DNA of 27,465 nucleotides from a virus. A program made the position numbers and the translations under genes. The first letter of the stretch is position 1; each line of letters opens with the position of its first letter. Of the stretch, positions 6,331 to 23,030 are shown piece after piece. Where the stretch lies: IMG/VR virus record IMGVR_UViG_3300032323_000590, positions 1 through 27,465 of that record; one strand, written 5' to 3'. The notes under the pieces were generated by a model. That model had not been told where the DNA came from and did not search any database. It worked only from the letters and a program-made list of their open reading frames with translations.

Positions 6331-7492
6331 CTTCGTATTTAGAGCAAACAATACTCCTTTTGAAAGTCTATACGTAACTTGGGAAGAGCTTGGATTCAAC
6401 GCAGATGATTTCAGAGGCGGCGGTTTGTGGTCATGGGGCGTAGCAAGCTACGGTCGATTAGGTCATGGTGACACTACCGTCAGATCATCACCTGTTCAAG
6501 TAGGTGCATTGACAAACTGGACTCAAGCTAGTGCAGGGTTTGAACATTCAGCGGCAGTAAGATTAGATGGAACTTTATGGACATGGGGTGATAATCGTGA
6601 CGGTCAACTAGGTTTAAACGATACAACCAATAGAAACTCACCAGTTCAAGTGGGAACAGGTACAAGTTGGAGAAATGTTGCTGCTGGACGCCGAATTACT
6701 TTTGCAATTACTCGTAATGGTAGTTTGTGGTCATGGGGTCTTAATAGTTTTGGCCAATTAGGTTTAAATGACAGAACTAATAGATCAAGTCCAGTTCAAA
6801 TTGGAACACTGACAAATTGGAAACAAGTTTCTTGTACTTTATATAATATATCGGCTATTAGATCAGATGGTACACTATGGGCTTGGGGTAGAAATGATCT
6901 TGGTCAATTAGGTCTTGGTGATATCGTACATAGATCATCGCCAGTTCAGGTAGGATCATTGACCAATTGGAGTCAAGTTTTTGCAGGACAAGCACATACA
7001 CTAGCTGTCAAAACCGATGGATCGCTGTGGTCATGGGGTGATAATTCTAACAGTCAATTAGGCGGAGGAGCCACACGCTCATCACCAGTTCAGGTTGGTT
7101 CACTGACCAACTGGAAACAAGTTTCTAGTGCCGCCGGGACGGGTGCAACATTGGCTGTTAAGACAGATGGCACACTATGGTCGTGGGGTAGAAACAATAT
7201 TGGCGAGTTTGGCACAGGTGAAAGCGGATTATCCGTTCGGAATTCTCCAGTACAAGTTGGCACTCTCACTAATTGGAAACAAATAGGGACAGGAAAAGGT
7301 GCTACTGGCGCTCATTCTGTATTTGCCATCAAAACAGACGGCACTCTATGGGCGTGGGGTACCAATGCCATATTTGGTCAATTAGGTCTTGGTGATACAA
7401 CGCCCAGATCATCGCCAGTTCAAGTAGGATCATTAACCAATTGGAAACAAGTTGATGCATGGGATCATGCTTTAGCTTTAACAAGAATATAA
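6323..7492 (+). CDS. RCC1-repeat seven-bladed propeller protein 1 (389 aa)
   Basis: After a unique leader of about 33 residues (MVDFVFRANNTPFESLYVTW...) the protein consists of seven RCC1-type repeats. The consensus is LWxWGxNxxGQLGLGD, RSSPVQVGSLTNW, QVSxGxxHxLAVKTDGT, about 48-53 residues each. RCC1 repeats fold as a seven-bladed beta-propeller. Finding exactly seven, with strand-like segments at both ends, fits a closed ring. The gene overlaps the end of the S74 fibre by 8 bases and precedes a DUF4376-like fibre-assembly gene. A virion adhesin or host-binding tip is therefore more likely than a Ran GTPase exchange factor. It has two paralogues, at 8164 and 11236. Repeat 5 is shorter, reading SQLGGGATRSSP. 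There is no signal peptide. Confidence 0.8.
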   Translation: MVDFVFRANNTPFESLYVTWEELGFNADDFRGGGLWSWGVASYGRLGHGDTTVRSSPVQVGALTNWTQASAGFEHSAAVRLDGTLWTWGDNRDGQLGLNDTTNRNSPVQVGTGTSWRNVAAGRRITFAITRNGSLWSWGLNSFGQLGLNDRTNRSSPVQIGTLTNWKQVSCTLYNISAIRSDGTLWAWGRNDLGQLGLGDIVHRSSPVQVGSLTNWSQVFAGQAHTLAVKTDGSLWSWGDNSNSQLGGGATRSSPVQVGSLTNWKQVSSAAGTGATLAVKTDGTLWSWGRNNIGEFGTGESGLSVRNSPVQVGTLTNWKQIGTGKGATGAHSVFAIKTDGTLWAWGTNAIFGQLGLGDTTPRSSPVQVGSLTNWKQVDAWDHALALTRI

Positions 7493-7508
7493 GAGGTTTT
7501 AAGATAAT

Positions 7509-8162
7509 ATGTACGCACTCATTCATAACAATCAAATTCAAGTAGGTCCTCGTCAGTGGAATTATGCTTTCTTTAAAGACTATCTTGATGAAGAAGGTCT
7601 GAACGCAGATGCCTTGACGACAAGACCTCCAGAAGATAACAAGATTATTACAGATCAATGGAAGATCATCCCTGTGATTGATATTCAGTATGCCCAGCTT
7701 GACGAGCCATTTGAGCAGCCAGCAGGTCCATATTGGACAATTAACGATGAGTATATCACTGGTGAATATCTTGCTGTGCCAAACACAGTCGGTATGGTTC
7801 AAGGCAAACTGAAAGAGAAAGTCACAAATAATCGTTATAGAGTCGAGATCGGTGGTTGTCCATTTACTTTTTCTGATGGTACTGAGGTAACTCTATACAC
7901 AACTAGAGAAGATCGCAACGTTTACCTACAGGCATATCAAATTATGGCCGATGATGGTTCAATTGTATTTAAGTTTCCTAACGCTGTATTCAAGAGCGTC
8001 AATAAGACTGAGCTAGGTCAGATTGTTGCAGCAGGTTCGGCTCACATTCAAGAAGCATTCACATGGGAATCTGGTAAGTATGCAGAAATCGATGCTTGCA
8101 CAACTCTTGAAGAACTTAAGTTGATCGACACGAAGCATCCATCACAAGTATCTGAGGAATAA
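7509..8162 (+). CDS. DUF4376-like tail-fibre assembly/accessory protein (217 aa)
   Basis: The N-terminal part (MYALIHNNQIQVGPRQWN, residues 1-90) has the short-strand, YxxI-rich style of phage fibre accessory proteins. Residues about 110-210 (YRVEIGG, FSDGTEVTLYTTREDR, ELGQIVAAGSAHIQEAFTWE, TTLEEL) fit the DUF4376 pattern. That domain is common in fibre-assembly or fibre-tip proteins of tailed phages. The gene sits between two RCC1 propeller genes, 16 bases after one and one base before the next, so a role in assembling or attaching the propellers is a natural inference. Family assignment is by eye and the biochemical role is unknown. There is no membrane segment. Confidence 0.6.
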   Translation: MYALIHNNQIQVGPRQWNYAFFKDYLDEEGLNADALTTRPPEDNKIITDQWKIIPVIDIQYAQLDEPFEQPAGPYWTINDEYITGEYLAVPNTVGMVQGKLKEKVTNNRYRVEIGGCPFTFSDGTEVTLYTTREDRNVYLQAYQIMADDGSIVFKFPNAVFKSVNKTELGQIVAAGSAHIQEAFTWESGKYAEIDACTTLEELKLIDTKHPSQVSEE

Positions 8163-8163
8163 A

Positions 8164-9315
8164 ATGCCTGCAAGTATTACTAGGTTTACTGAAGAAGATA
8201 TTGATCTTGCAGATAAGTATCTCGCCAAAGCTGATGCTTCATTGATACCTGCAAAAGGACTGTGGTCGTGGGGATTAAATAATGACGGTGGACTAGGTCA
8301 TAATGACAGAACTAATAGATCATCGCCAGTTCAAGTGGGGTCTCTAACTAATTGGAGCCAAGTTGATGCCGCCGTCAGTAATTCTGCTGCAATAAAATCT
8401 GATGGTACTTTATGGACTTGGGGTAACAATACACATGGACAGTTAGGTCTTGGTGACAGAACTAATAGATCATCGCCAGTTCAAGTGGGGTCTCTAACTA
8501 ATTGGAGACAGGTTTCTACTAGTCTTCATACATTAGCATTAACAACTAATGGAGGATTATGGGCATGGGGTAGAAACAACTATGGTCAACTAGGTCTTAA
8601 TGACCTCGTACATAGATCGTCACCAGTTCAGGTAGGATCACTGACTAATTGGAGTCAAATTTCTTGTACTTATCATTCATTAGCTGTTAAAACAGATGGT
8701 ACTTTGTGGGCATGGGGTAGAAACAACTATGGTCAACTAGGTCTTAATGACAGAACTAATAGATCATCGCCAGTTCAAGTGGGTACATTAACCAATTGGA
8801 GTCAAATTTCAGCAGGATTAGGACATTCATTGGCTGTTAAAACAGACGGTACTTTGTGGGCATGGGGCTATAACCGTTCAGACACACGTCAATTAGGTCT
8901 TCTTGATGCCATACACAGATCATCACCAGTTCAAGTGGGGTCTCTAACTAATTGGAGACAAGTTGCTGCTGGTGGTACGTCTAATTCATTAGGATTTTCA
9001 TTAGCTGTTAAAACTGATGGTACATTATGGGCTTGGGGTACTAACAGCTTTGGCAGTTTAGGTCTTGGTGATATCACACCTAGATCATCTCCAATTCAAG
9101 TTGGAGCACTTACTAATTGGAGTCAAGTTTCTGCTCGAAGTAGAGTTTCATTTGCTGTTAAAACTGATGGTACATTATGGGGTTGGGGTTATAACGACAT
9201 TGGTAACTTAGGTCTAAATGATAGAACACGCAGATCGTCACCAGTTCAAGTAGGATCACTGACTGGGTGGAGACAAGTTTCTGCTTCTTTCCTAACATTA
9301 GCTTTATTTAAGTGA
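8164..9315 (+). CDS. RCC1-repeat seven-bladed propeller protein 2 (383 aa)
   Basis: This is a paralogue of the proteins at 6323 and 11236. Its different leader (MPASITRFTEEDIDLADKYL, residues 1-32) looks helical and may be an attachment peptide. Seven RCC1-type repeats follow, starting GLWSWGLNNDGG and ending in LTLALFK. Repeat 5 carries a short insertion (YNRSDTRQLGLLD, then AAGGTSNSLGF). Several repeats are nearly identical at DNA level: 8304-8357 and 8454-8507 are a perfect 54-bp copy, and 8560-8604 recurs at 8707-8751. This indicates recent exchange between blades. It follows the DUF4376-like gene directly. I infer a virion adhesin with variable loops; no enzyme motif is present. Confidence 0.8.
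   Translation: MPASITRFTEEDIDLADKYLAKADASLIPAKGLWSWGLNNDGGLGHNDRTNRSSPVQVGSLTNWSQVDAAVSNSAAIKSDGTLWTWGNNTHGQLGLGDRTNRSSPVQVGSLTNWRQVSTSLHTLALTTNGGLWAWGRNNYGQLGLNDLVHRSSPVQVGSLTNWSQISCTYHSLAVKTDGTLWAWGRNNYGQLGLNDRTNRSSPVQVGTLTNWSQISAGLGHSLAVKTDGTLWAWGYNRSDTRQLGLLDAIHRSSPVQVGSLTNWRQVAAGGTSNSLGFSLAVKTDGTLWAWGTNSFGSLGLGDITPRSSPIQVGALTNWSQVSARSRVSFAVKTDGTLWGWGYNDIGNLGLNDRTRRSSPVQVGSLTGWRQVSASFLTLALFK
8304..8507 (+). repeat. Exact 54-bp repeat within propeller 2
   Basis: Bases 8304-8357 and 8454-8507 are identical, 150 bases apart, which is one RCC1 blade. They encode the RTNRSSPVQVGSLTNW part of blades 1 and 2. A second exact repeat, 45 bp, lies at 8560-8604 and 8707-8751. Identity at synonymous sites shows recent conversion or duplication, not selection on protein alone. 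Confidence 0.85.
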
Positions 9316-13163: not shown

Positions 13164-13961
13164 ATGATTCTGGTTACTGGACACAAAGGCTTCATCGGCA
13201 GAAATCTTGCTAATCATCTTGAACAAAGAAACAACAAAGTCTACGGTCTAGATCGTAAAGACGGAGATGTGTTTGAACAATTGAATGACGTGCCTTGGAA
13301 AGATATTACTGAAATCTATCATCAAGGTGCCATTTCAAGCACAACAGAACAAAACGTTGACGCGATCTACAAACACAACATCAAGTTCAGCATTGATCTT
13401 TTTGAGAAAGCTATTGAGCATGAGATTATTGTTAAGTATGCATCTTCAGGTTCAGTATATGGCAACTCAAAAGACTATTCATACAACCCTCTAAACTACT
13501 ATGCCATGTCTAAGTTGACAGTCGATATGTGGGTCAAGCAGAACAAGCGCCGTTTCAAAAAGAACATTACAGGCTTTCGCTATTTTAATGTCTACGGCAA
13601 AGATGAAATGAAAGACGATCTTAGCACAAGCCCAATCTATCGCTTCAGCGAGCAAGCGAAGAGTACGGGCATCATCAAGATTTTCAAGGGATCGGATAAG
13701 ACGTTTCGTGACTTTATATGCGTAGAAGATATCATCAGCATTATCACTGACGATCACGCATTTGGTATATTTGATTTGGGCACAGGAACTCCTGTTAGCT
13801 TTCTTGAAGTCGCAGAACTCGTTTCAGAGAAGTACGACGCAGCCGTCAAGTTTATCCCTATGCCCGATATTGTAAAGGGAAAGTATCAGTTTTACACAAA
13901 GGCAAAAGATGAATACAATCACCATTTCATTTCAGTTAAAGATTGGTTAGCTAAGACCTAA
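13164..13961 (+). CDS. hldD: ADP-L-glycero-D-manno-heptose 6-epimerase-like (HldD-like SDR, 265 aa)
   Basis: This is an extended short-chain dehydrogenase. TGHKGFIG (5-12) is the NAD(P)-binding loop. The catalytic set is Ser94/95 (YASSGSVYG) with Tyr113 and Lys117 (YYAMSK). Specific resemblance to HldD/RfaD comes from HQGAISSTTEQN (53-64), FRYFNVYG (138-145), KTFRDFICVEDI, FDLGTGTPVSF and MPDIVKGKYQFYTKA, each with a close counterpart in the E. coli enzyme. HldD converts ADP-D-glycero- to ADP-L-glycero-manno-heptose. At 265 residues it is shorter than the roughly 310 of E. coli. Its 3' end overlaps the convergent APS-kinase gene by 15 bases. The HldE-like gene on the other strand would make its substrate. 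Confidence 0.8.
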   Translation: MILVTGHKGFIGRNLANHLEQRNNKVYGLDRKDGDVFEQLNDVPWKDITEIYHQGAISSTTEQNVDAIYKHNIKFSIDLFEKAIEHEIIVKYASSGSVYGNSKDYSYNPLNYYAMSKLTVDMWVKQNKRRFKKNITGFRYFNVYGKDEMKDDLSTSPIYRFSEQAKSTGIIKIFKGSDKTFRDFICVEDIISIITDDHAFGIFDLGTGTPVSFLEVAELVSEKYDAAVKFIPMPDIVKGKYQFYTKAKDEYNHHFISVKDWLAKT

Positions 13962-14747
13962 TTCTTTTCTGATTTTAGTTGCTGATATATTGTGAGTTGC
14001 ATCATCGAAGACTTCTTGTTCGATCTTGTAGCCCACATCTCTACCGTAAGTAATATTGACGATGTTAGGTACGACCATAATCGTATACTGCCCGTAGTAT
14101 TTGGGACCTAAAGCTTTATGAATCCTATCGATAACATCGTCAACATCAAATGGGTTGCTATCGTTCCAACCCTGACAGTCGCGAATCATAATGCAGACTT
14201 GACCAGTCTTGTCTAGCGCACGATTGAACAGAGCCATATGACCATCATGCCAAGGCTGCCAGCGACCTAGCATCTGCACTGTAGGCTTTCGAAAATCAAA
14301 TTGACTGGGCTTCTTCTTATTCAGAATGTCGCTCGCTATTCGCTGCGCCCATCCCTTAGCATCAAAATTAGTTATGCGATAGTCATACTTTGTCGGTGGC
14401 TCGAATATCTTATTTGTATCTTCATATCTACCCTTCTTGATAGTATCAAGCCAAATGATATAATCAGGTTCACCATTGCACGAAAAGACTTCTCGCATTT
14501 TTTGTGTTGGGCAGATAAACTCGCAGATAGATGTGACATTATTCTTCTTGTCCAACTTAGCTAGATCAGCCATGCGTTGAGCTTGTCTTAGTCTGCCGGA
14601 TTCGCTGAAGTCCCAATCTTCAAATAGCTTGCGAACATTATCAGCATTATGCCAGTTAATCTGTATCTTATCAAGTAAGATACTACTCAGTTCTTGAGCT
14701 AATGTTGTCTTACCAGAACCAGGTAGACCCATAATCAAAATCTTCAT
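13947..14747 (-). CDS. APS-kinase-like domain fused to HxGH nucleotidyltransferase (266 aa)
   Basis: The N-terminal domain (1-145) has a P-loop GLPGSGKT (7-14), followed by NADNVRKLFEDWDFSES and RLRQAQRMADLA. These align with the GDNVR...LGFS and RxxEVA regions of adenylylsulfate kinase (CysC), which makes PAPS. CEFICPTQKMREVF and the RYEDTNKIFEPP region also fit. The C-terminal domain (about 157-266) is a nucleotidyltransferase with GRWQPWHDGH (161-170) and ISATKIR (254-260), which are the two hallmarks of the cytidylyltransferase/NMNAT superfamily. ATG at 14747 is chosen over an upstream TTG because it forms a TGATG junction with the preceding gene. The C-terminal substrate is unknown; an ATP-sulfurylase-like activity is possible but its RNPxHxxH motif is not seen. 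It is the last gene of the minus-strand operon. Confidence 0.7.
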   Translation of the reverse strand: MKILIMGLPGSGKTTLAQELSSILLDKIQINWHNADNVRKLFEDWDFSESGRLRQAQRMADLAKLDKKNNVTSICEFICPTQKMREVFSCNGEPDYIIWLDTIKKGRYEDTNKIFEPPTKYDYRITNFDAKGWAQRIASDILNKKKPSQFDFRKPTVQMLGRWQPWHDGHMALFNRALDKTGQVCIMIRDCQGWNDSNPFDVDDVIDRIHKALGPKYYGQYTIMVVPNIVNITYGRDVGYKIEQEVFDDATHNISATKIRKELGLS

Positions 14748-15556
14748 CAACCAATCTCCTCTGTAATCTTTTGTCTTAATTCTACTGGCACGATCTCCGC
14801 CATAGACATTCTTCTGAGTGTTACTTCAACTTCTCGTTTCTTATTTGGTTCTCTTGAGCATTTTACATAGTCACATCCAGTCTTGATGAAGTTTTCCATA
14901 TCTTGTTCACGAAAGTAATGATTGACCAGAAACCATAATGTCCAATCATTAGTAGGATTGATCTCATATTCTTCCGTAAGCATCTTCAAGTAGAGTTCCG
15001 GTCTTGCCTTCTTCTTAAAGTCTTGATCGTGTATCAGATAGATATCGTCATTATATATTTCAACCTCTGATCGATCTTTATGTATCCATGATAGATGTTC
15101 GTAGATAGGCTGTGACCAGGTATAGTCATGTCGTCTATGTATCTTGTTTGTGCCGAGTGTCTTTGGTGGTCCTACACGAACAACATTCGAGTACAGGTCG
15201 AGACGATCACACGAGATGTTAGTCACATTAGGATTCCGTCCAATAGTCTTAATCATCTCATCAAGCACATTGATAGAGAAGTACTCATCTAGATCAGGCG
15301 ACAGCGCCCATTCTACATCATCTGGTACCATAGACAAGTTATATTTTCTAGCTACATCAAACTTCCATGGTGTAAACGTCTTCTGTTCTATAATAAGATT
15401 AGGGTCAGACTTGGTTGCTTCTTGAAATAGTTCGTATGTTCCGTCTGTTGAGCCGGTATCAAGAACAACCCGATAGTCAAACTTCTCGGTATAGAACAGC
15501 CACTTTTCTACAAACTGTTTTTCATTCTTACAGATAGTATATGCCGCAGTTTTCAT
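14747..15556 (-). CDS. Family 2-like glycosyltransferase (GT-A fold, 269 aa)
   Basis: The start MKTAAYTICKNEKQFVEKWL is the typical first strand and helix of GT2-type enzymes. VVLDTGSTDGTYELF (31-45) binds the nucleotide. ALSPDLDEYF (84-93) sits where the DxD metal site is expected, here as DLDE. The C-terminal half is helical and poorly conserved. No membrane segment is present, so it is a soluble transferase. The start overlaps the HAD gene by 4 bases (ATGA). In the operon it probably adds a sugar to a surface glycan or protein; donor and acceptor cannot be read from sequence. Confidence 0.75.
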   Translation of the reverse strand: MKTAAYTICKNEKQFVEKWLFYTEKFDYRVVLDTGSTDGTYELFQEATKSDPNLIIEQKTFTPWKFDVARKYNLSMVPDDVEWALSPDLDEYFSINVLDEMIKTIGRNPNVTNISCDRLDLYSNVVRVGPPKTLGTNKIHRRHDYTWSQPIYEHLSWIHKDRSEVEIYNDDIYLIHDQDFKKKARPELYLKMLTEEYEINPTNDWTLWFLVNHYFREQDMENFIKTGCDYVKCSREPNKKREVEVTLRRMSMAEIVPVELRQKITEEIG

Positions 15557-15870
15557 TTCTGTGTTATCCTATTTACACCTCTAAAATATCTGAGACTGTT
15601 CATGGCCTTATCATCTATGAATAAATCGAAAGAAGGCTTACCAGTCTGTATGCTCGTAAACTTACAGCCCCAAGATTCAAGCTGCTTCACGGTAAACTCT
15701 TGTAAGTCTTTACCAGAATTATTACCTCTAGCGGTCCAATAGTGAACTTCGTGACCTTTTGAATATAGTTCGTTTAGATGCTGTATTCTGTCATGATATG
15801 GTTTGCTATTAGCGTAGTCGCTGTCTTTCGTTTCACATATCGTATTGTCTATATCAACATAATAAATCAT
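15553..15870 (-). CDS. Small HAD-superfamily phosphatase (105 aa)
   Basis: This is a compact HAD hydrolase. YVDIDNTIC (4-12) carries the nucleophile Asp6 and acid/base Asp8 of motif I. YWTARGN (44-50) is motif II, with Thr46. Lys78 (TGKPS) is motif III, and FIDDKA (84-89) is motif IV. No cap domain fits in 105 residues. Related small HAD proteins occur in capsule and LPS sugar clusters. It lies downstream of an HldE-like kinase/nucleotidyltransferase, and heptose synthesis needs a bisphosphate phosphatase (GmhB), so it may fill that role. GmhB is a longer HAD protein, so this is only a suggestion. It overlaps both neighbours by 4 bases. Confidence 0.7.
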   Translation of the reverse strand: MIYYVDIDNTICETKDSDYANSKPYHDRIQHLNELYSKGHEVHYWTARGNNSGKDLQEFTVKQLESWGCKFTSIQTGKPSFDLFIDDKAMNSLRYFRGVNRITQK

Positions 15871-16217
15871 TGCGAATCTCCTGGCATAACTCTGTAGTTA
15901 TCATTAGGGTCATCGTGAGTCGAAACTTCAACGATGCATGAGTCGTCTTCAAGAGCAATCAGTTGATGAGGCATAAGAGGCGGGTTGTGCCAGTTTTCTC
16001 CTGTGCAAAGCACTTGCTCGTGTACAGAGGCATCTTTTGTCTCAATCCACTTGACTATAAAAGAGCCGCGCTGAACATACCAAGTCTCGTCTTTGATAGC
16101 ATGAAAATGCATTGAGGAGCGATTATCCTCTTTATCAAAGATCATAAACTTACCACAGTAATTTGGCATATCGGCAAAGATTATCTCTCTGCCCCAGCCT
16201 TTCTCTATAACTTTCAT
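15867..16217 (-). CDS. Cupin-domain sugar-phosphate isomerase-like protein (116 aa)
   Basis: This is a single cupin barrel. MHFHAIKDETWYVQRG (36-51) is cupin motif 1 with metal ligands His37, His39 and Glu44. PPLMPHQLIAL (79-89) is motif 2 with His84. The start KVIEKGWGREIIFAD resembles the C-terminal cupin of mannose-6-phosphate isomerase / GDP-mannose pyrophosphorylase proteins and stand-alone cupins of nucleotide-sugar clusters. It may isomerise or epimerise a sugar phosphate, or simply bind one. It lies in the operon between the HldE-like enzyme and the HAD phosphatase, with 4-base ATGA overlaps on both sides. Specificity is unknown. If it replaces the missing heptose isomerase GmhA it would be an unusual substitution, as GmhA is not a cupin. 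Confidence 0.7.
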   Translation of the reverse strand: MKVIEKGWGREIIFADMPNYCGKFMIFDKEDNRSSMHFHAIKDETWYVQRGSFIVKWIETKDASVHEQVLCTGENWHNPPLMPHQLIALEDDSCIVEVSTHDDPNDNYRVMPGDSQ

Positions 16218-17365
16218 GCTCTCTCCAATATGCTTGTCGTAGAATAACCGCTGATAAAAGGTATCAATTTTACATGTGCTAGATCATGACCGACAACTTG
16301 ATCTATCGATGTATAATCTCCACCCTTTGTGATGATGTCTGGTTTGATTCGCTTTATTAGTTCGTATGGTGTGTCTTCGTCGAAAACAATAACCTCGTCT
16401 ACGCAACCAAGACTTTCTAATACAAACTTTCTGTCTGATTGATTGTTTACAGGTCTTGAGAAACCTTTCAGACGCTTTACAGATTTATCTGAGTTTAGAC
16501 CCACTATAAGCTTGTCGCCTAACTTTTTAGATTTCTGTAGATATTCAACATGACCGCGATGTATGATATCAAAACAGCCGTTTGTGAATATGATCTTAGG
16601 AGTAACTTTTCTTATATCTTCTTCTGTCAGAACGTATGTGCCGAACTTAGTCACCGATATAGAGGCTAGTCTTGTCGCCTTTGCTGTAGCTTCTTTTATA
16701 TCGAAGCCCTTAGCTAGATAGAAACCAAGAGACGCTATAAAGACATCGCCAGCTCCAGTAACGTCAGAAACAGCATAGTTCGTCGTTTCGACTTCTGAAA
16801 TGCCTTTTGAGTCTATGATAAGAACTGGCTTCGAAGCTCTGGTAACTATGATCGTATCAATACTGTAATGAACTCGTGCTTTCTCATAGTCTGAAATTTC
16901 TGAATACTTACTGAACTCTTTTTCATTTAGCTTTACTATGTCTGCGTTTCTATAATTGTCGAGAGACTTTTTAGGATCAACTATGACAAACTTATTTCGC
17001 GACTTTAGATGTTTTATGATGTCTGCTGATCTGTGCAAAAAGCCCTTGTTATAGTCTGACAATATGACAATCTTGGACGAGAACTCATATTCTGTAAAAT
17101 TTATCGGTAAATAAGACTCGTCATCAACGCGAAAGACAATATGATTATCGACTACGTATCTGGTTTTAGTAGAAGTCTGAGTGAAATGATACTCAATCTC
17201 AGCACCTAGAGCTTTTAGGTTTAGACAGACGTTTTCTACGCCGCCGCCCCTAGTCTCTCTATTTGTCTCTTGAAATACTGGAACTGGCGATTCGGGGGAA
17301 AGTCTATCACAGGTACCATAAATATACTGGTCAACTATGTAATCTCCTAAGAGACCGATTTTCAT
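16214..17365 (-). CDS. hldE: Bifunctional heptose kinase/nucleotidyltransferase, HldE-like (383 aa)
   Basis: The N-terminal PfkB-type kinase (1-245) has LGDYIVDQYIYG, GGGVENVCLNLKALGA (40-55), which binds the sugar, and DVTGAGD (201-207) with catalytic Asp207. The C-terminal nucleotidyltransferase (258-383) has FTNGCFDIIHRGHVEYL (HxGH at 269-272), LNSDKSVKRLKG and ITKGGDY, each close to E. coli HldE. Together the domains phosphorylate D-glycero-manno-heptose 7-phosphate and, after a phosphatase step, make ADP-heptose. The kinase half is about 80 residues shorter than in E. coli (477 total). ATG at 17365 is chosen over a start 12 codons upstream because GGAG lies 6 bases before it and the upstream ATG falls in the promoter -10 box. 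It is the first gene of the operon. Confidence 0.85.
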   Translation of the reverse strand: MKIGLLGDYIVDQYIYGTCDRLSPESPVPVFQETNRETRGGGVENVCLNLKALGAEIEYHFTQTSTKTRYVVDNHIVFRVDDESYLPINFTEYEFSSKIVILSDYNKGFLHRSADIIKHLKSRNKFVIVDPKKSLDNYRNADIVKLNEKEFSKYSEISDYEKARVHYSIDTIIVTRASKPVLIIDSKGISEVETTNYAVSDVTGAGDVFIASLGFYLAKGFDIKEATAKATRLASISVTKFGTYVLTEEDIRKVTPKIIFTNGCFDIIHRGHVEYLQKSKKLGDKLIVGLNSDKSVKRLKGFSRPVNNQSDRKFVLESLGCVDEVIVFDEDTPYELIKRIKPDIITKGGDYTSIDQVVGHDLAHVKLIPFISGYSTTSILERA

Positions 17366-17371
17366 TTCAAA

Positions 17372-17375
17372 CTCC
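17372..17375 (-). promoter_or_regulatory. Ribosome-binding site of the HldE-like gene
   Basis: On the minus strand GGAG lies 6 bases before the ATG at 17365. It decides the start in favour of MKIGLLGDY over the upstream MFYIFIYF. Confidence 0.8.
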
Positions 17376-17383
17376 ACAAAGTA

Positions 17384-17391
17384 TATAAATA
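17384..17391 (+). promoter_or_regulatory. T4-type late promoter TATAAATA for the morphogenesis operon
   Basis: TATAAATA is the exact T4 late-promoter consensus (recognised in T4 by the gp55/gp33 sigma system). It lies 31 bases before the gp13 ATG, in the only intergenic space between the divergent sugar operon and the neck-terminase genes. Confidence 0.75.
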
Positions 17392-17400
17392 TATAGAACA

Positions 17401-17429
17401 ATTATAACAGAGAGTACCATTAATGTCAA
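17401..17429 (-). promoter_or_regulatory. Consensus sigma70 (early-type) promoter of the minus-strand operon
   Basis: Reading the minus strand: TTGACA at 17429-17424, a 17-base spacer, then TATAAT at 17406-17401. Both hexamers and the spacing are exact consensus. Transcription would start near 17394 and give a leader of about 30 bases to the HldE-like ATG. The -35 box covers the first codons of gp13 on the opposite strand. Such strong host-type promoters drive early genes in T4. Confidence 0.85.
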
Positions 17430-18167: not shown

Positions 18168-19040
18168 ATGGCAACCTCTCAGTACTTCAACAACTTCTCT
18201 GTTGCTACCATTGGCGAACAGCGTCTCATGGAAGACGTTATTGTTGAATCTATCAAGATCATGGGCCATGACGTTTGGTACATACCTCGCGAAGGATTCA
18301 ACGAGACTGACTTTCTCTTCGGTGAAAACGTACAGTCAAAGTTTGAACGTGCATATCAGATAGAAATGTATCTAGCGAACGTAGAAGGCTACGAAGGTGA
18401 TGGTGACTTCTTCTCCAAGTTCGGTCTAGAAATTCGAGACACATCTAACTTTGTAGTCTCGCGCAGATCGTTCGAACGTTATATACCTTCAGCTTTGGCT
18501 ATCAGACCAAAAGAAGGTGATCTTGTCTATGTGCCACTGATGAGAAAGCTATTCGAAATCAAGTTCGTCGAAGAAGAATTGATGTTCTTCTCACTCGGCA
18601 AGCGCAATCCATATATCTACGAACTGCGCTGCGAACTCTTCCGTTACAGCAACGAGAGTATCGATACTGGTGTTGATGAGATCGATGAGATTGAAGATAG
18701 ACACTCTTATGCTATTCAGCTTGATTTCTCTTCAGGCACAGGCAACTTCATTAAGAGCGAAACTGTCTATCAGGGTGCAAATGTGAATACTGCTATTGCT
18801 GTTGGACACGTCAAAGAATGGGATAGAACAAATACTAAATTGCAAATCATCAACATTCAAGGCACCTTCACACCCGGCTCTAACGTAAGAGGTGAGACAT
18901 CGAACGCCGTCTATGTTATTCAGACGCAAGATGATCTCGAAGACTTTGCTGTATACGATCAGTACGATAATAGAAACATTCAAGATGAAGCTAACACATT
19001 CATCGACTTTACTGATACCAATCCATTTGGACGACCATAA
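18168..19040 (+). CDS. gp14: Neck protein gp14 (290 aa)
   Basis: This is the second neck protein, partner of gp13. Typical gp14 segments are MATSQYFNNFS, EQRLMEDVIVESIKIMGHDVWYIPRE (17-42, written here only as landmarks), EGDGDFFSKFGLEIRD (76-91) and the RRSFERYIP region. Against T4 gp14 (256 aa) it has extra sequence at 192-251. That is a 60-residue beta-type segment with an ungapped counterpart in gp15. The last 40 residues are acidic and end NPFGRP. Its stop overlaps the gp15 start by one base (TAATG). Confidence 0.88.
   Translation: MATSQYFNNFSVATIGEQRLMEDVIVESIKIMGHDVWYIPREGFNETDFLFGENVQSKFERAYQIEMYLANVEGYEGDGDFFSKFGLEIRDTSNFVVSRRSFERYIPSALAIRPKEGDLVYVPLMRKLFEIKFVEEELMFFSLGKRNPYIYELRCELFRYSNESIDTGVDEIDEIEDRHSYAIQLDFSSGTGNFIKSETVYQGANVNTAIAVGHVKEWDRTNTKLQIINIQGTFTPGSNVRGETSNAVYVIQTQDDLEDFAVYDQYDNRNIQDEANTFIDFTDTNPFGRP
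18741..18920 (+). other. 60-residue module in gp14 shared with gp15
   Basis: This encodes gp14 residues 192-251. It aligns without gaps to gp15 residues 235-294 (19742-19921) with 23 identities of 60 counted by eye, including VYQG, the Trp at position 27, QGxF and NAxY. It coincides with the length excess of this gp14 over T4 gp14. Confidence 0.75.
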
Positions 19041-20047
19041 TGTTAAGTAGTCAAACTTTTTACTTTCAGCTAACCAGAAAATATGTCATTCTGTTCGGCA
19101 ACATGTTCAATAACATTGCTGTTGTTAGAAAGAATAAGACAACCGGCGCTGAGATTGAAAGACTAAAAGTTCCTATCATCTACGCTCCAAAAGAAAAGTT
19201 CTTCGCTCGCTTCGAAGCCGATCCTGATTTGACAAGAGAACTACAGATCGTTCTGCCGCGCATGTCGTTTGAGTTGACAGGGTTCAGCTATGACGCTGCT
19301 CGTAAGCAGAACTCGTTACTCAGAACAGCAAAAGCAAATACTGCTACTCGTGTAGGTTCTCAGTACATGGGTGTGCCATATGATCTAGAGTTTGAACTGA
19401 ACATCTATACTCGTAACATCGACGATGGCACACATATTGTAGAGCAAATTCTACCATACTTCAACCCTGATTATACAGTGACTATCAATGCGATACCTGA
19501 AATCGGATTCACTAAAGATGTGCCGATCATTCTGAATACTGTATCGAATCAGATTGAACACGAAGGTAACTTCGATGCCGTTCGTTACGTGACATGGAAG
19601 CTAACTTTCACAATGAAAGCTAACTACTATGGTCCAGTCAGCACACCGAAGATCATTCGCGAAGTCAATACAAACATCTATAATGATCCTTCGCTCAAGT
19701 CGGGCAATATAATTCGCATCAACACAGGCAACGGCAACAACGGTACATTCAAAGAATCAGATGTCGTTTATCAAGGTGAAAACTATCAGACAGCGACAGC
19801 ATATGCTCAGGTAGTTTCTTGGAATGAGAATACGGGTAAGCTCGTTATCGGTGGTGGTCAAGGTCAGTTTAAGGCAGGTCAGATTATCAAAGCAACTTCG
19901 ACAAATGCCTCGTACAACTTGTCAAGTTTCGAATCAGCCCCAATGAAGCTCGTAAATATAAATATCGTGCCTGATCCAATCGATGCAGAACCAGAAGACG
20001 ATTACGGATACACAACAACAATCACAGAATGGCCGGATACAGTATAA
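19040..20047 (+). CDS. gp15: Tail terminator / sheath stabiliser gp15 (335 aa)
   Basis: In T4, gp15 caps the finished tail tube and sheath and receives the head-neck complex. SQTFYFQLTRKYVILFGNMF (4-23), YAPKEKFFARFEADPDL (48-64) and LPRMSFELTGFSYDAARK (72-89) match the hallmark N-terminal half of gp15 proteins. It is 335 residues against 272 in T4. The extra length is largely the 60-residue module at 235-294 shared with gp14, plus an acidic C-terminus. It overlaps the next gene by one base if that gene starts at 20047. Confidence 0.88.
   Translation: MLSSQTFYFQLTRKYVILFGNMFNNIAVVRKNKTTGAEIERLKVPIIYAPKEKFFARFEADPDLTRELQIVLPRMSFELTGFSYDAARKQNSLLRTAKANTATRVGSQYMGVPYDLEFELNIYTRNIDDGTHIVEQILPYFNPDYTVTINAIPEIGFTKDVPIILNTVSNQIEHEGNFDAVRYVTWKLTFTMKANYYGPVSTPKIIREVNTNIYNDPSLKSGNIIRINTGNGNNGTFKESDVVYQGENYQTATAYAQVVSWNENTGKLVIGGGQGQFKAGQIIKATSTNASYNLSSFESAPMKLVNINIVPDPIDAEPEDDYGYTTTITEWPDTV
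19742..19921 (+). other. 60-residue module in gp15 shared with gp14
   Basis: This encodes gp15 residues 235-294, the counterpart of gp14 192-251 (18741-18920). It is same length and ungapped. It is probably a small beta domain inserted after the conserved core. Confidence 0.75.
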
Positions 20048-20583
20048 TGCTATCATTTTCAGAGTTTCTTTTAGAGAAAGCAGAGTATAACGCACAAGAA
20101 GGCGAAAGCTCAGTTGTTCACCATGCGTCTGATCAAGACTTCGATCAGTTTAGACCACTGTCTCACTTTGGAACTGCGAATGCAGCAAGAGCCAGAGCCG
20201 TATCTGTAGGTCAGTCTTCAAAAGAGCCAAAGAATCTTTACTCTGCAAGAATACGAACAGGCAACGTAGTTAGAATCGGTGATGATGCCGAGAATCATAC
20301 TCCAGCATCTATTCTTCATAGCCTTCACAAAGCGGGACATGTTACTGTCAGTCATTATATAAAGATGGATGATAAGATGAGAGCCGCATCCAGTGAAGGT
20401 GAGCGATCAAAAATATTGACAGACTTTCTGAAAAAGAGAAAGATTAATACTATTGCATACAAGAACAGAGTAGAAGATCCGGGTAGTACAAGTTATATCA
20501 TCACACACCCTAATCAAGTACGACTACTCAGAAAGACAAAAGCGCCTATCAATGTTAAAAGAGGCGAAGCGAAGTTGAAATGA
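20047..20583 (+). CDS. Putative packaged ADP-ribosyltransferase-like protein (178 aa)
   Basis: Residues 22-165 have the layout of phage ADP-ribosyltransferase-like (ART/PolyVal-type) domains. These are SVVHHASDQDFDQF (22-35) with a His where NAD-binding Arg/His sits, SHFGTANAA (39-47), LYSARIRTGNVVRIGDD (64-80), and AYKNRVEDPGSTSYIITHP (137-155) with Glu143 as possible catalytic residue. The first ten residues, MLSFSEFLLE, resemble the capsid-targeting peptide of T4 internal proteins (IPIII begins MKTYQEFIAE) and end in LLE, fitting the (L/I)-x-E site of the head protease gp21. I infer packaging in the head and injection. ATG at 20047 (TAATG junction) is preferred to 20029, which would add six residues before this peptide. 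It has no counterpart at this position in T4. The activity is unproven. Confidence 0.6.
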   Translation: MLSFSEFLLEKAEYNAQEGESSVVHHASDQDFDQFRPLSHFGTANAARARAVSVGQSSKEPKNLYSARIRTGNVVRIGDDAENHTPASILHSLHKAGHVTVSHYIKMDDKMRAASSEGERSKILTDFLKKRKINTIAYKNRVEDPGSTSYIITHPNQVRLLRKTKAPINVKRGEAKLK

Positions 20584-21011
20584 AAAAGTTTAGTGAAGCT
20601 CTTGGTATTGAACATGACGAGTCTCCTAGGCAGGTAGAGATACTTCCACCAGTACTTGTTGCTGAACAATCTCTACCTGCTGAATCCTTACCCGATCAGG
20701 CGGAAGACTACAGACTTGCTCGTAAGACATTTCGTAATCTGATTGATAAGGGTAATGGTGCTATCGAAGACTTGAGCGATCTGGCTCGTCAGAGTGAAAG
20801 CCCAAGAGCATATGAAGTTCTTGCTACACTTATGAAGACAGTCGGTGACACAACGAAAGACTTGTATGATCTTCAGAAGAAGACTAAAGACTTGATGAAA
20901 GACGACAAGGCAAGACCACAAGACGAGCAGCGCATCAATGTGGAGAAGGCCGTCTTCGTTGGTTCTACTGCCGAATTGCTCAAGAAAATAAAGAACAATG
21001 AAGACGTTTAA
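20580..21011 (+). CDS. gp16: Terminase small subunit gp16 (143 aa)
   Basis: gp16 forms rings that regulate the packaging motor and recognise DNA. DYRLARKTFRNLIDKGNGAI (47-66), ARQSESPRAYEVLATLMKTV (about 74-93) and the helical DLYDLQKKTKDLMKD segment correspond to the central coiled-coil of T4 gp16 (DSPRHMEVFATLMGQM there). NVEKAVFVGSTAELLKKI near the C-terminus matches NIQNATVFMGSPTELMDEI. Length is 143 against 164. It overlaps the upstream gene by 4 bases (ATGA) and the downstream one by 14. It lies two genes before gp17, as expected apart from the inserted GNAT gene. Confidence 0.88.
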   Translation: MKKFSEALGIEHDESPRQVEILPPVLVAEQSLPAESLPDQAEDYRLARKTFRNLIDKGNGAIEDLSDLARQSESPRAYEVLATLMKTVGDTTKDLYDLQKKTKDLMKDDKARPQDEQRINVEKAVFVGSTAELLKKIKNNEDV

Positions 21012-21360
21012 GCAGTTCATCAAAGAAAGCAAGATCGAAGATGATCTTTATAAAGACAAACTTGAGGGCTTAAAGGATATTCAAGGTGATGTCTATATTC
21101 GTCACCGTAAAGATGTTCTTGATGGCAGAAGTATATACACCGTACATCATCAAGGCAATAAGATCGCTTCTGCAAAGTTGAGCGGTCAAGATCACTATGT
21201 CACTGACGTTGACGTTAAACCTGAGTTTCGCCGAAAGGGTATTGCGTCGAAGATGTATGACTTCATTGAAAAGCATACAGGCAAACAACTCAAGCCTTCA
21301 CCAATGTATCAGACAGCAGATGGCAAGGCTCTGTGGAAGAAGAGAGAGCAGTCTAAGTAA
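20998..21360 (+). CDS. Putative packaged GNAT N-acetyltransferase-like protein (120 aa)
   Basis: Residues about 30-118 look like a compact GNAT domain. VYIRHRKDVLDGRSIYTVHHQGNK gives the early strands, cited here only by position 32-55. VTDVDVKPEFRRKGIASKM (68-86) is motif A with the R-x-x-G-x-A acetyl-CoA pyrophosphate loop at 78-83, and SPMYQTADGKALWKKR (101-116) is the C-terminal signature. The N-terminus MKTFKQFIKE is very close to the T4 internal-protein capsid-targeting peptide MKTYQEFIAE, and IKE fits the gp21 cleavage rule (L/I)-x-E. The protein is probably packaged in the prohead and trimmed. No target is known; a host or viral protein lysine or small molecule is possible. It overlaps gp16 by 14 bases and gp17 by one. 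Confidence 0.6.
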   Translation: MKTFKQFIKESKIEDDLYKDKLEGLKDIQGDVYIRHRKDVLDGRSIYTVHHQGNKIASAKLSGQDHYVTDVDVKPEFRRKGIASKMYDFIEKHTGKQLKPSPMYQTADGKALWKKREQSK

Positions 21361-23030
21361 TGCCACGTTATGAAGGTTATCAGGGGAATCCAAATCTTCC
21401 CCGTGAAGATTACATACACTCTTTCACTCAGCATGAGAAGGATGAGTTCATCAAATGTGTGAATGATCCTATTTACTTTGCTGTAACCTACATGAAAATC
21501 ATCAACGTTGATCATGGTCTGATGCCCTTCAAGATGTGGGACTTTCAGAAGGACATGCTTCAGACGTTTCATGATAATCGCTTCTCTATTTGTAAACTGC
21601 CTCGTCAGGTCGGTAAGACAACAACATCCGTAGCATATCTGCTTCACTACATTCTATTCAACGAGATGGTCAACATAGCTATTCTGGCTAACAAGTCATC
21701 TACCGCTCGTGAAATCATGGGCCGTCTCCAGCTTGCATTTGAATATCTTCCGCGCTTTCTTCAGCAAGGTGTCAAAGAATGGAACAAGGGTTCTATCGAA
21801 CTTGCGAATGGTTCAAGAGCCGTTGCCGACTCGACTTCTGGTAGCTCTGTTCGTGGTAGATCATTCAACGTAGTCTTCCTTGACGAGTTTGCGTTCGTGC
21901 CAAACAACATTGCCGAAGCCTTCTTCATGTCAACTTATCCTACGATTTCTTCTGGTCAAAGCACGAAGGTCATCATCGTATCAACACCAAACGGTCTGAA
22001 TCTGTTCTATAAGATGTGGCAAGATGCTCTTGAAAAGCGCAGTCTGTACGTTCCAATCGAAATTCACTGGTCTATGGTGCCCGGTCGCGACGATAAGTGG
22101 AAAGAAGAGACTATCAAGAACACCTCAGAGGATCAGTTCCGTCAGGAGTTTGAATGCGAGTTCATCGGTTCTACTAATACTCTGATTCACCCAGCAAAGC
22201 TCAGAACACTGGTTTTTAAGAATCCAATAGCAAAAGACGGTCTTCTTGACATCTACGAACAGCCTGTATCTAACAGAACTTACTGCATGACTGTAGACGT
22301 TGCAGAGGGTCAAGGATTAGACTATTCGACGTTTTCTATCTTCGATGTTTCACAGATACCGTATGTGCAGGTGGCTAAATATAAGAATAACAAGATAGCA
22401 CCACTACTATTCCCTACTGTGATTCTACAGGCTGCGCGTAAATACAATGACGCATTCATTCTTGTAGAAATCAATAGTATCGGTCTTCAGGTTTCAGACA
22501 TTCTTCATTTTGAACTTGCCTATGACAATCTCATCAAGATTCAAGTAAAGGGTAAGCAAGGTCAGATGTCTACATCTGGTTTTACAAAGAAGGTCGCATA
22601 CGGACTTAGACAGTCTGTTCAAACTAAGAACATTGGCTGTGCGAACCTCAAGGCTCTTGTTGAATCTGACAAGCTGATTATTAATGACGCCGATACGATT
22701 ATGGAACTGACTACATTCTCAGCAGAAAAGAAATCATTCAAAGCTGAAGAAGGTAATCATGACGACTTAGCTATGACACTTGTAAACTTTGGTTGGTTGA
22801 CAGCACAAAGATATTTTAAAGAGAATATAAACAACGATATAAGAAAGGTTCTGCAAGAAGAGCAGATGAGTCTTATGGATCAAGATTTAGTGCCTTTTGG
22901 TATTATAGACAATGGACTTGACGAGCCTTGGGACAATTCTAAAGATGCTCAAGGTGACTTTTGGGTAGAAGATAGAAAAAAGCTCTATCCTTTCGATAAT
23001 TTTGCATGGGACTGGCAACAGAAGCTATAA
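21360..23030 (+). CDS. gp17: Terminase large subunit gp17 (556 aa)
   Basis: This is the ATP-driven DNA packaging motor and headful nuclease. In the ATPase domain, Walker A is PRQVGKTT (81-88), Walker B with catalytic Glu is VVFLDEFAF (171-179), and the coupling motif is STPNG (208-212). In the RNase-H-fold nuclease, the acidic triad candidates are Asp313 (TVDVAEGQG), Glu370 (ILVEINSIG) and Asp468/469 (GNHDDLAM). Length is 556 against 610 in T4, and the N-terminal region is shorter. The start overlaps the GNAT gene by one base (TAATG). All catalytic motifs are intact. Confidence 0.95.
   Translation: MPRYEGYQGNPNLPREDYIHSFTQHEKDEFIKCVNDPIYFAVTYMKIINVDHGLMPFKMWDFQKDMLQTFHDNRFSICKLPRQVGKTTTSVAYLLHYILFNEMVNIAILANKSSTAREIMGRLQLAFEYLPRFLQQGVKEWNKGSIELANGSRAVADSTSGSSVRGRSFNVVFLDEFAFVPNNIAEAFFMSTYPTISSGQSTKVIIVSTPNGLNLFYKMWQDALEKRSLYVPIEIHWSMVPGRDDKWKEETIKNTSEDQFRQEFECEFIGSTNTLIHPAKLRTLVFKNPIAKDGLLDIYEQPVSNRTYCMTVDVAEGQGLDYSTFSIFDVSQIPYVQVAKYKNNKIAPLLFPTVILQAARKYNDAFILVEINSIGLQVSDILHFELAYDNLIKIQVKGKQGQMSTSGFTKKVAYGLRQSVQTKNIGCANLKALVESDKLIINDADTIMELTTFSAEKKSFKAEEGNHDDLAMTLVNFGWLTAQRYFKENINNDIRKVLQEEQMSLMDQDLVPFGIIDNGLDEPWDNSKDAQGDFWVEDRKKLYPFDNFAWDWQQKL

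What the first reader, a model, noticed from the sequence alone, without database searches (positions are those of the whole stretch)
20047..20583. ADP-ribosyltransferase-like protein with a capsid-targeting-type N-terminus, inserted between gp15 and gp16
Seen: MLSFSEFLLE at the start, then an ART-like layout (HHASDQDFDQF, SHFGT, YKNRVEDPGSTSY). Known: T4 packages internal proteins that carry an N-terminal capsid-targeting peptide cut by gp21 after (L/I)-x-E, and T4 injects the ART Alt. Inference: this is a small Alt-like effector delivered with the DNA, encoded in the late neck-terminase block and unrelated in length to T4 Alt (682 aa). It could modify host RNA polymerase, translation factors or a defence protein.
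Basis: partly seen in the sequence, partly recalled or inferred. Interest (0 to 1): 0.75.

Follow-up and report, generated by a model that had tools for sequence, protein, structure and literature searches.

The report
Capsid-tagged ADP-ribosyltransferase-fold phage cargo
A T4-like environmental phage carries a small protein with a predicted ADP-ribosyltransferase fold and the same kind of ten-residue address tag that sends proteins into the T4 head; in its relatives that tag sits in front of many different cargo proteins, so this looks like one of a large set of proteins injected into bacteria with the phage DNA.

Summary
The ORF at 20047-20583 is real: it lies between gp15 and gp16, and its body is under strong purifying selection (dN/dS 0.054 against its closest relative). 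AlphaFold2 (pLDDT 83.7) gives an ADP-ribosyltransferase (ART) fold. The best PDB match is a chain of a cyanophage pre-ejectosome, then an anti-CRISPR protein and PARPs. By sequence it is a divergent sister of ART-PolyVal, not an Alt homologue. His26 is kept, but the usual Tyr is His40 and the usual acid is absent; Glu143 is invariant in close relatives, so catalysis is unproven. The N-terminus MLSFSEFLLE fits the T4 capsid-targeting sequence at its four critical positions. A strict form of that motif finds only ipII and ipIII in T4 and 0 of 273 core proteins of relatives, but 87 of 8339 starts where about 1 is expected. It precedes many unrelated bodies: 16 groups around gp17, 67 after a wider scan (an upper bound), including SAM-lyase, zeta-toxin-like and two other ART types. 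The gp16-gp17 junction is a cargo slot whose tag DNA often overlaps the gp16 stop. "Packaged, injected ART-like effector" is well supported as inference; packaging, cleavage, activity and target are untested.

The parts
20047..20583 (+). ART-fold cargo protein, 178 aa
   Evidence: ORF; AF2 pLDDT 83.7; Foldseek/VIA ART matches; relatives
20047..20076 (+). capsid-targeting-type N-terminus MLSFSEFLLE, codons 1-10 (F4, F7 targeting positions; L8, E10 processing positions); predicted protease cut after Glu10
   Evidence: T4 rule in PMC9026906 section 2.6; motif statistics
20122..20124 (+). His26, first catalytic-type residue (strand 1), invariant in 16 of 16 aligned ART domains
20164..20166 (+). 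His40 in SHFGT, at the place of the usual catalytic Tyr (strand 2)
   Evidence: correspondence by sequence, not by superposition
20473..20475 (+). Glu143, invariant in the 8 rows of A3, candidate substitute acid
20491..20493 (+). Ser149, at or next to the place where relatives carry Glu/Gln/Asp
19040..20047 (+). gp15, tail sheath stabiliser (context)
   Evidence: PF16724 1.7e-68
20580..21011 (+). gp16, small terminase (context)
   Evidence: PF11053 8e-17, phrog_445 1.1e-34
20998..21360 (+). second tagged cargo gene: GNAT acetyltransferase, MKTFKQFIKE N-terminus
   Evidence: PF00583 25.2 bits, cut-off 20.7; strict tag
20998..21011 (+). 14-nt overlap: start of the second tag lies inside the end and stop codon of gp16; same arrangement in 42 of 73 gp16 genes examined
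21360..23030 (+). gp17, large terminase (context)
   Evidence: PF03237, PF17289
25794..27455 (+). gp20 portal (context); in relatives a tagged Alt-like ART gene follows it, in this window the sequence ends
   Evidence: phrog_213 2.2e-209

Best explanation
The gene encodes a small effector with an ADP-ribosyltransferase fold that is put into the phage head during assembly and injected with the DNA. Step 1 (inferred from the motif): residues 1-10, part of a predicted helix with Phe4 and Phe7, bind the prohead core. Step 2 (inferred): the prohead protease gp21 cuts after Leu-Leu-Glu10, freeing residues 11-178. Step 3 (inferred): the free protein leaves through the tail with the DNA and acts early on NAD and a host target, most plausibly modifying a host or defence protein. 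Computed here: the fold (prediction), selection on the protein, the tag and its specificity, and the variety of tagged cargo at this locus in relatives. The active site is a non-canonical variant (His26, His40, Glu143, Ser149 instead of His-Tyr-Asp/Glu), so ADP-ribosyl transfer is likely but not certain.
For: ART fold: AF2 pLDDT 83.7, pTM 0.77; Foldseek PDB rank 1 is 9k3a_B of a cyanophage pre-ejectosome, E 4.4e-5, then an anti-CRISPR protein (E 5.8e-3), PARP4, PARP14 and RES; the 50 VIA rows shown are PARP, tankyrase or ParT chains, best Z 8.3, rmsd 4.3 over 120 residues; BFVD best match pT24 4.3e-10 and several ART-PolyVal-like rows. Sequence: pT24 genes 157 and 156 exceed the PF18760 cut-off (43.8 and 73.8 against 31.2 bits); hhalign of the subfamily with the latter, probability 96.5. 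Tag: the strict motif finds only ipII and ipIII among 1155 in-frame Met in T4; 0 of 273 core proteins and 87 of 8339 starts against about 1 expected; a permuted tag pattern gives 0 stretches in IMG/VR against at least 120 for the real one. Between window and L001 five tag residues differ, yet F4, F7 and E10 are kept and residue 8 stays Leu/Ile. Context: prohead protease gp21 in 8 of 8 long relatives that I chose; an LNE site in gp23 of two of them aligned with T4 Glu65; relatives of this domain also occur inside very long phage proteins; L072 has the same ART behind MKTFKQFLEE at the gp16/gp17 slot.
Against: No direct Pfam match of the protein itself. Neither the Tyr nor the acid of the published H-Y-D active site is present (PMC5512222 section 9). 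Foldseek TM-scores by query length are low (0.29-0.44), only one PDB match is under E 0.001, and Z near 8 is close to what unrelated models can reach. gp21 itself is not in this 27-kb fragment. Two free-standing relatives, L011 (MKSYRLFLES) and L005 (MKRLRDILSE), do not fit the strict motif. The motif misses two T4 cargo genes, ipI and alt, and is absent from the 15.6-kb stretches around gp17 of HTVC008M and Mosig. No virion proteomics is at hand.
Confidence: 0.65

Rival explanations
1. The protein is packaged and injected, but its ART-fold domain is not a transferase: it is an NAD(H)- or ADP-ribose-binding pseudoenzyme, or an NAD-cleaving enzyme, that blocks or depletes a host factor.
For: Tyr and acid of the canonical triad are missing; RES toxin chains, recalled as NAD-cleaving, also match the model.
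Against: His26 is invariant in 16 of 16 rows; His40, Glu143, Ser149 and Tyr150 are invariant in 8 of 8 rows of A3, which looks like a kept active site rather than decay.
Confidence: 0.28
2. The protein is not packaged; the N-terminus is a translation or folding feature of genes wedged between overlapping late genes, and the protein acts in the cytoplasm late in infection, as T4 ModA and ModB do.
For: Late-gene location alone does not prove packaging; 33 of the 79 wider-scan loci show no T4-type or window core gene in the fetched stretch.
Against: The motif is absent from 273 core proteins in the same gene block, occurs elsewhere in the genomes including an Alt-like gene after gp20, and in T4 marks only two internal head proteins.
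Confidence: 0.14
3. A head or neck structural protein that happens to have an ART-like fold.
For: It lies between neck and terminase genes.
Against: Of the 80 gp17 loci only L001 shows it at the gp15/gp16 place; homologues occur in different genomic places and as parts of long proteins.
Confidence: 0.05

Closest known systems
ART-PolyVal domain (PF18760, Tox-ART-HYD2 clade; Iyer et al. 2017, PMC5512222)
   Same: Fold, His in strand 1, C-terminal SYI..PNQ region shared with pT24 members, phage setting, predicted delivery with DNA
   Different: No match to the family model; His instead of Tyr, no acid at the usual place; single small gene with a capsid-targeting tag instead of a domain in a giant protein
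T4 internal proteins IPII and IPIII with capsid-targeting sequence
   Same: Ten-residue N-terminus with aromatics at 4 and 7, Leu/Ile at 8, Glu at 10; small protein in a T4-type phage
   Different: Body has an ART fold; different locus; cut would be Glu-Lys rather than Glu-Ala
T4 Alt (packaged ADP-ribosyltransferase)
   Same: Proposed mode of action: packaged, injected ART
   Different: Alt belongs to the R-S-E clade (PMC5512222); this protein has no match to PF03496 or phrog_802. Relatives have a separate Alt-like gene after gp20 with its own tag
Cyanophage A4 pre-ejectosome chain 9k3a_B
   Same: Best structural match; by its title a chain of a phage ejection complex (title only seen)
   Different: 1071-residue chain; 8% identity over the aligned part

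Membership tests
ART superfamily (fold) | split-beta ART core | tested here: met
   AF2 model matched to PARP, ParT, RES and anti-CRISPR chains; prediction only, Z about 8, low TM-scores
ART-PolyVal PF18760 | score over the curated cut-off | tested here: not met
   no PF18760 match at E<=1; two pT24 relatives pass
ART-PolyVal PF18760 | His in strand 1 | tested here: met
   His26, 16 of 16 rows
ART-PolyVal PF18760 | Tyr in strand 2 | tested here: not met
   His40 in SHFGT by sequence correspondence
ART-PolyVal PF18760 | Asp (or Glu) in strand 5 | tested here: not met
   Thr148-Ser149; Glu143, invariant in A3, lies six residues upstream
T4-type CTS-bearing internal proteins | aromatic residues at 4 and 7 | tested here: met
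   F4, F7; positions from PMC9026906 section 2.6
T4-type CTS-bearing internal proteins | (L/I)xE ending at residue 10 | tested here: met
   L8-L9-E10; I8 in L001
T4-type CTS-bearing internal proteins | gp21-type prohead protease in the same phage | tested here: inconclusive
   this 27-kb record ends after gp20; present in 8 of 8 long relatives that I chose
T4-type CTS-bearing internal proteins | present and cleaved in virions | not testable with these tools
   needs virion proteomics
T4 Alt family | match to ADPrib_exo_Tox / Alt-like models | tested here: not met
   no PF03496 match at E<=1, no phrog_802 match at E<=0.1; the separate gene L028:11777 matches both

The most novel reading that the evidence does not exclude
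The ten-residue capsid-targeting tag is a portable address module of T4-like phages. Its DNA, which at the gp16/gp17 slot often also encodes the last codons and stop of gp16, is the conserved join behind which unrelated effector genes are swapped. A large, mostly unnamed set of injected effectors (at least three ART types, SAM lyase, zeta-toxin-like kinase, GNAT, ParB-like and many unknowns) can be read directly from genomes by this tag. The window's ART is one of them, with a new His-His-Glu/Ser active site.
Probability: 0.45. Interest if true: 0.87.

Novelty: new variant of a known kind. Interest (0 to 1): 0.72.

Why it matters
If the tag marks head-packaged proteins, a ten-residue sequence rule picks out injected effectors in T4-like phages, including those of uncultured hosts. 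That makes hypotheses about early host takeover and anti-defence directly testable by virion proteomics. That T4-like phages might use the tag to package varied proteins has been suggested in a review (PMC9026906 section 2.6). What is added here is a quantitative case, a defined cargo slot beside the terminase genes, an inventory of cargo that includes several enzymes, and an ART variant lacking the textbook active-site residues.

Tried and rejected
Pfam, PHROG and PDB sequence searches with the protein alone gave no named family: Pfam none relevant, phrog_21376 of unknown function at 8e-8, PDB none. Profiles of A3 and A4 against PDB sequences gave only chance-level hits, so the ART assignment rests on fold and on the ART-PolyVal link. 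A genome-contig scan with the subfamily gave 34 pattern matches and no confirmed relative. The second structure prediction, of the 245-aa cargo family that precedes gp17 in L001, was poor (pLDDT 59.8) and was not searched further. PADLOC on 67 cargo representatives gave 3 families, one member each (ShosT, PDC-M13A, PDC-M13B), not followed up. NCBIfam gave nothing over a cut-off for the 10 proteins tried.

Membership of the Alt family was considered and rejected. Limits of the tag counts: loci L130-L208 were fetched by the tag pattern itself, so they show diversity of bodies, not enrichment. The 67 groups are single-linkage blastp groups at E 1e-3, so distant homologues are split (ART-PolyVal members stand apart from the window's group) and 67 is an upper bound; only 20 Pfam families were matched at E 0.001 over the 67 representatives. 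At least one tagged protein looks like an internal Met of a phosphoribosyltransferase (L146). The strict motif misses ipI and alt in T4, and T4 was scanned in four pieces. Of 47 genes in 50 distinct gp16/gp17 intervals, 5 have no tag and 12 keep only the targeting half. Of three named isolates tested over 15.6 kb around gp17, HTVC008M and Mosig have no strict tag (0 of 157 and 0 of 114 Met) and S-SRM01 has one (of 136). The correspondence of His40 with the usual Tyr and of Ser149 with the usual acid is from sequence; I could not superpose the model, as the listing of the script box showed no coordinate files.

Papers: PMC5512222, section 9 and found passages; PMC9503650, found passages only; PMC9026906, section 10 (heading 2.6) and found passages. 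Ten library searches listed, by title and start of abstract, no paper on tagged cargo in marine or freshwater T4-like phages; most subscription journals are not in that library. From recall, not from calls: 6kyf being AcrIF11 and an ART, RES toxins cleaving NAD, the T4 gp23 cut after residue 65, PARP1 motif positions.

Full report
What is there. It lies between gp15 (PF16724) and gp16 (PF11053), followed by a GNAT gene and gp17. The window is a 27,465-base virus record with one copy of the gene. The 25 best gp17 matches among named phages, at 54-59% identity, are Pelagibacter, Synechococcus and Prochlorococcus phages, a cyanophage and two single-cell marine viruses.

Relatives. L001 has an 84% identical protein before gp16. 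Comparison of codons gives dN/dS 0.068 overall, 0.054 for residues 13 onwards (dS 1.39) and 0.52 for the first 12 codons. More distant relatives are: L072 (36%), between gp16 and gp17 behind MKTFKQFLEE; L011 (38%), starting MKSYRLFLES; L002/L005 (33%), starting MKRLRDILSE; and parts of long proteins, 1359 aa in L010, 1682 aa in L006-L009 and 2888 aa in L013 (in L013 only 33 residues match). The L011 and L005 N-termini resemble the tag but do not fit the strict motif. Two neighbouring genes of Tenacibaculum phage pT24 are relatives as well, and both exceed the ART-PolyVal cut-off. The 1359-aa L010 protein combines this ART with a GNAT match, a ParB_N match below its cut-off, and a canonical ART-PolyVal domain. 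The window phage has an ART and a GNAT, and L001 an ART and a ParB-like protein (named from the look of its sequence; no Pfam match), as separate short genes.

Fold. AlphaFold2 on an eight-row alignment gave mean pLDDT 83.7 and pTM 0.77, with a helix over residues 4-14. Foldseek against PDB put a cyanophage pre-ejectosome chain first (9k3a_B, E 4.4e-5, probability 1.00; the only match under E 0.001), then an anti-CRISPR protein (6kyf), PARP4, PARP14 and RES toxins. In the VIA re-alignment the 50 rows shown are PARP, tankyrase or ParT chains, best Z 8.3, rmsd 4.3, 120 aligned; the tool warns that Z near 8 is not decisive on its own. BFVD gave 43 matches at E<=0.001, led by the pT24 protein. hhalign of the subfamily (A1) with the pT24 156 protein gave probability 96.5, E 9.8e-10.

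Active site. ART-PolyVal is described as having His, Tyr and Asp in strands 1, 2 and 5 (PMC5512222 section 9). In a 16-row alignment His26 is invariant. Nine rows have HFG where the Tyr-bearing strand is expected: the window, L001, L072, L010 first domain, L011, L005, both pT24 genes and L124; all nine also have N..E followed by S[YW][IM] (recounted). Reading by eye, seven of the nine have no acid at the two residues corresponding to Thr148-Ser149, and the other two (pT24 156, L124) have Asp at the first. Of the seven rows without HFG, six have Glu at one of the two and one (L126) has none. So this is a subfamily with an altered active site, and its chemistry is open.

The tag. In T4 the first ten residues of IPIII suffice for head targeting, residues 4 and 7 matter for targeting, 8 and 10 for processing, and gp21 cuts after (L/I)xE (PMC9026906 sections 2.5-2.6). 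The window protein has F4, F7, L8, E10. I tested the motif M..[FY]..[FY][ILMV].E. In the T4 record it picks ipIII and ipII and nothing else among 1155 in-frame Met with at least 60 aa after them; it misses ipI and alt. In the window it picks this gene and the GNAT gene, of 143. In the window plus 80 loci it picks 87 of 8339 Met peptides, against 1.18 (within-peptide shuffle) and 0.8 (pooled shuffle) on average. Of distinct gp13, 14, 15, 16, 17 and 18 proteins 0 of 29, 37, 40, 50, 58 and 59 carry it. Between window and L001 the tag differs at residues 3, 5, 6, 8 and 9 but keeps F4, F7 and E10, with Leu/Ile at 8.

A cargo slot. Among 50 distinct gp16-gp17 intervals in relatives, 18 are empty and 32 hold genes. 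Of the 47 genes, 30 have the strict tag, 12 the targeting half and 5 none (22 duplicate intervals left out). The 55 tagged proteins of at least 100 aa form 16 body groups. One group of 15 lies after gp20; its member L028:11777 matches ADPrib_exo_Tox (74.9 bits against a cut-off of 23.4) and the Alt-like family phrog_802. Another cargo, L079, passes the ART-PolyVal cut-off (34.0 against 31.2). In 42 of 73 gp16 genes (near-identical contigs included) a tag-like start lies 14 nt inside the gp16 end, so one stretch of DNA encodes both the gp16 stop and the start of the tag; in one of the 42 (L039) that frame stops after nine residues, which looks like a scar. Across 14 chosen first cargo genes (two of them both ParB-like) DNA identity is 0.38-0.55 in the gp16 end before the start, 0.85 and 0.66 over the first two 15-base steps of the tag, and 0.26-0.33 beyond.

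Wider scan. In 176 loci, including 79 fetched by the tag, 150 distinct tagged proteins of at least 80 aa form 67 body groups, 46 of them singletons. Over-cut-off Pfam matches among ten that I checked singly include ART-PolyVal, zeta toxin, S-adenosylmethionine lyase, lysozyme with LysM, and glucosaminidase. L145 holds a run of six tagged genes between gp18-like and gp19-like genes, one of them ART-PolyVal at 48.9 bits. In two long relatives strict-tagged genes number 3 and 6. 46 of the 79 loci show a T4-type or window core protein in the fetched stretch, 33 do not. gp21 (PF03420) is present in 8 of 8 long relatives chosen, and gp23 of two of them has LNE aligned with T4 Glu65. Among three named isolates, S-SRM01 has a strict-tagged 102-aa gene before gp17, while HTVC008M and Mosig have none in the 15.6 kb examined.

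Conclusion. The best reading is a head-packaged, injected ART-fold effector of a variant active-site subfamily, one item of a large class of tagged cargo. Fold, selection, tag and variety of cargo are computed results. Packaging, cleavage, injection, enzyme activity and target are inferences. The general idea that T4-like phages use the tag to package varied proteins is in print as a suggestion; the cargo slot and its inventory did not appear in the titles or abstract starts listed by the ten library searches made.

Noticed in passing
window 20998-21360: GNAT acetyltransferase gene with the same capsid-targeting N-terminus (MKTFKQFIKE), overlapping the gp16 stop by 14 nt.
   Followed up: yes
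L095:5334-5642 (Synechococcus phage S-SRM01): A named isolate with a strict-tagged gene (MKSFKQFISE) between gp16 and gp17, similar by eye to a tagged group in environmental contigs (L139); a ready case for virion proteomics.
   Followed up: partly
L145, reverse complement 4803-8313: Run of six tagged genes between gp18-like and gp19-like genes, one passing the ART-PolyVal cut-off.
   Followed up: partly
L010:6061-10140: 1359-aa polyvalent protein carrying a homologue of this ART, a GNAT, a ParB-like and a canonical ART-PolyVal domain, with short stretches that by eye resemble prohead-protease sites between domains.
   Followed up: partly
L135:1921-2421 (-): Tagged S-adenosylmethionine lyase (59.0 bits, cut-off 28), a possible packaged anti-restriction enzyme; five distinct proteins in its group.
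   Followed up: partly
L019, L020, L027, L081, L082, L083, L088 gp16-gp17 slot: Small 72-76 aa proteins (MKTYKQFISKR and similar) keep the targeting half of the tag but lack Glu10; perhaps packaged but not cut.
   Followed up: no
window 6323-7492 and 8164-9315: Two RCC1-repeat proteins of similar length, near a protein with an S74 chaperone domain.
   Followed up: no
window 13947-17401 (-): Reverse-strand island before gp13 with PfkB plus cytidylyltransferase, APS-kinase-like and glycosyltransferase-like genes.
   Followed up: no
L002:711-4213: Two proteins (373 and 777 aa) upstream of the ART with many EEQIDELS-type repeats that by eye resemble (I/L)xE protease sites.
   Followed up: no
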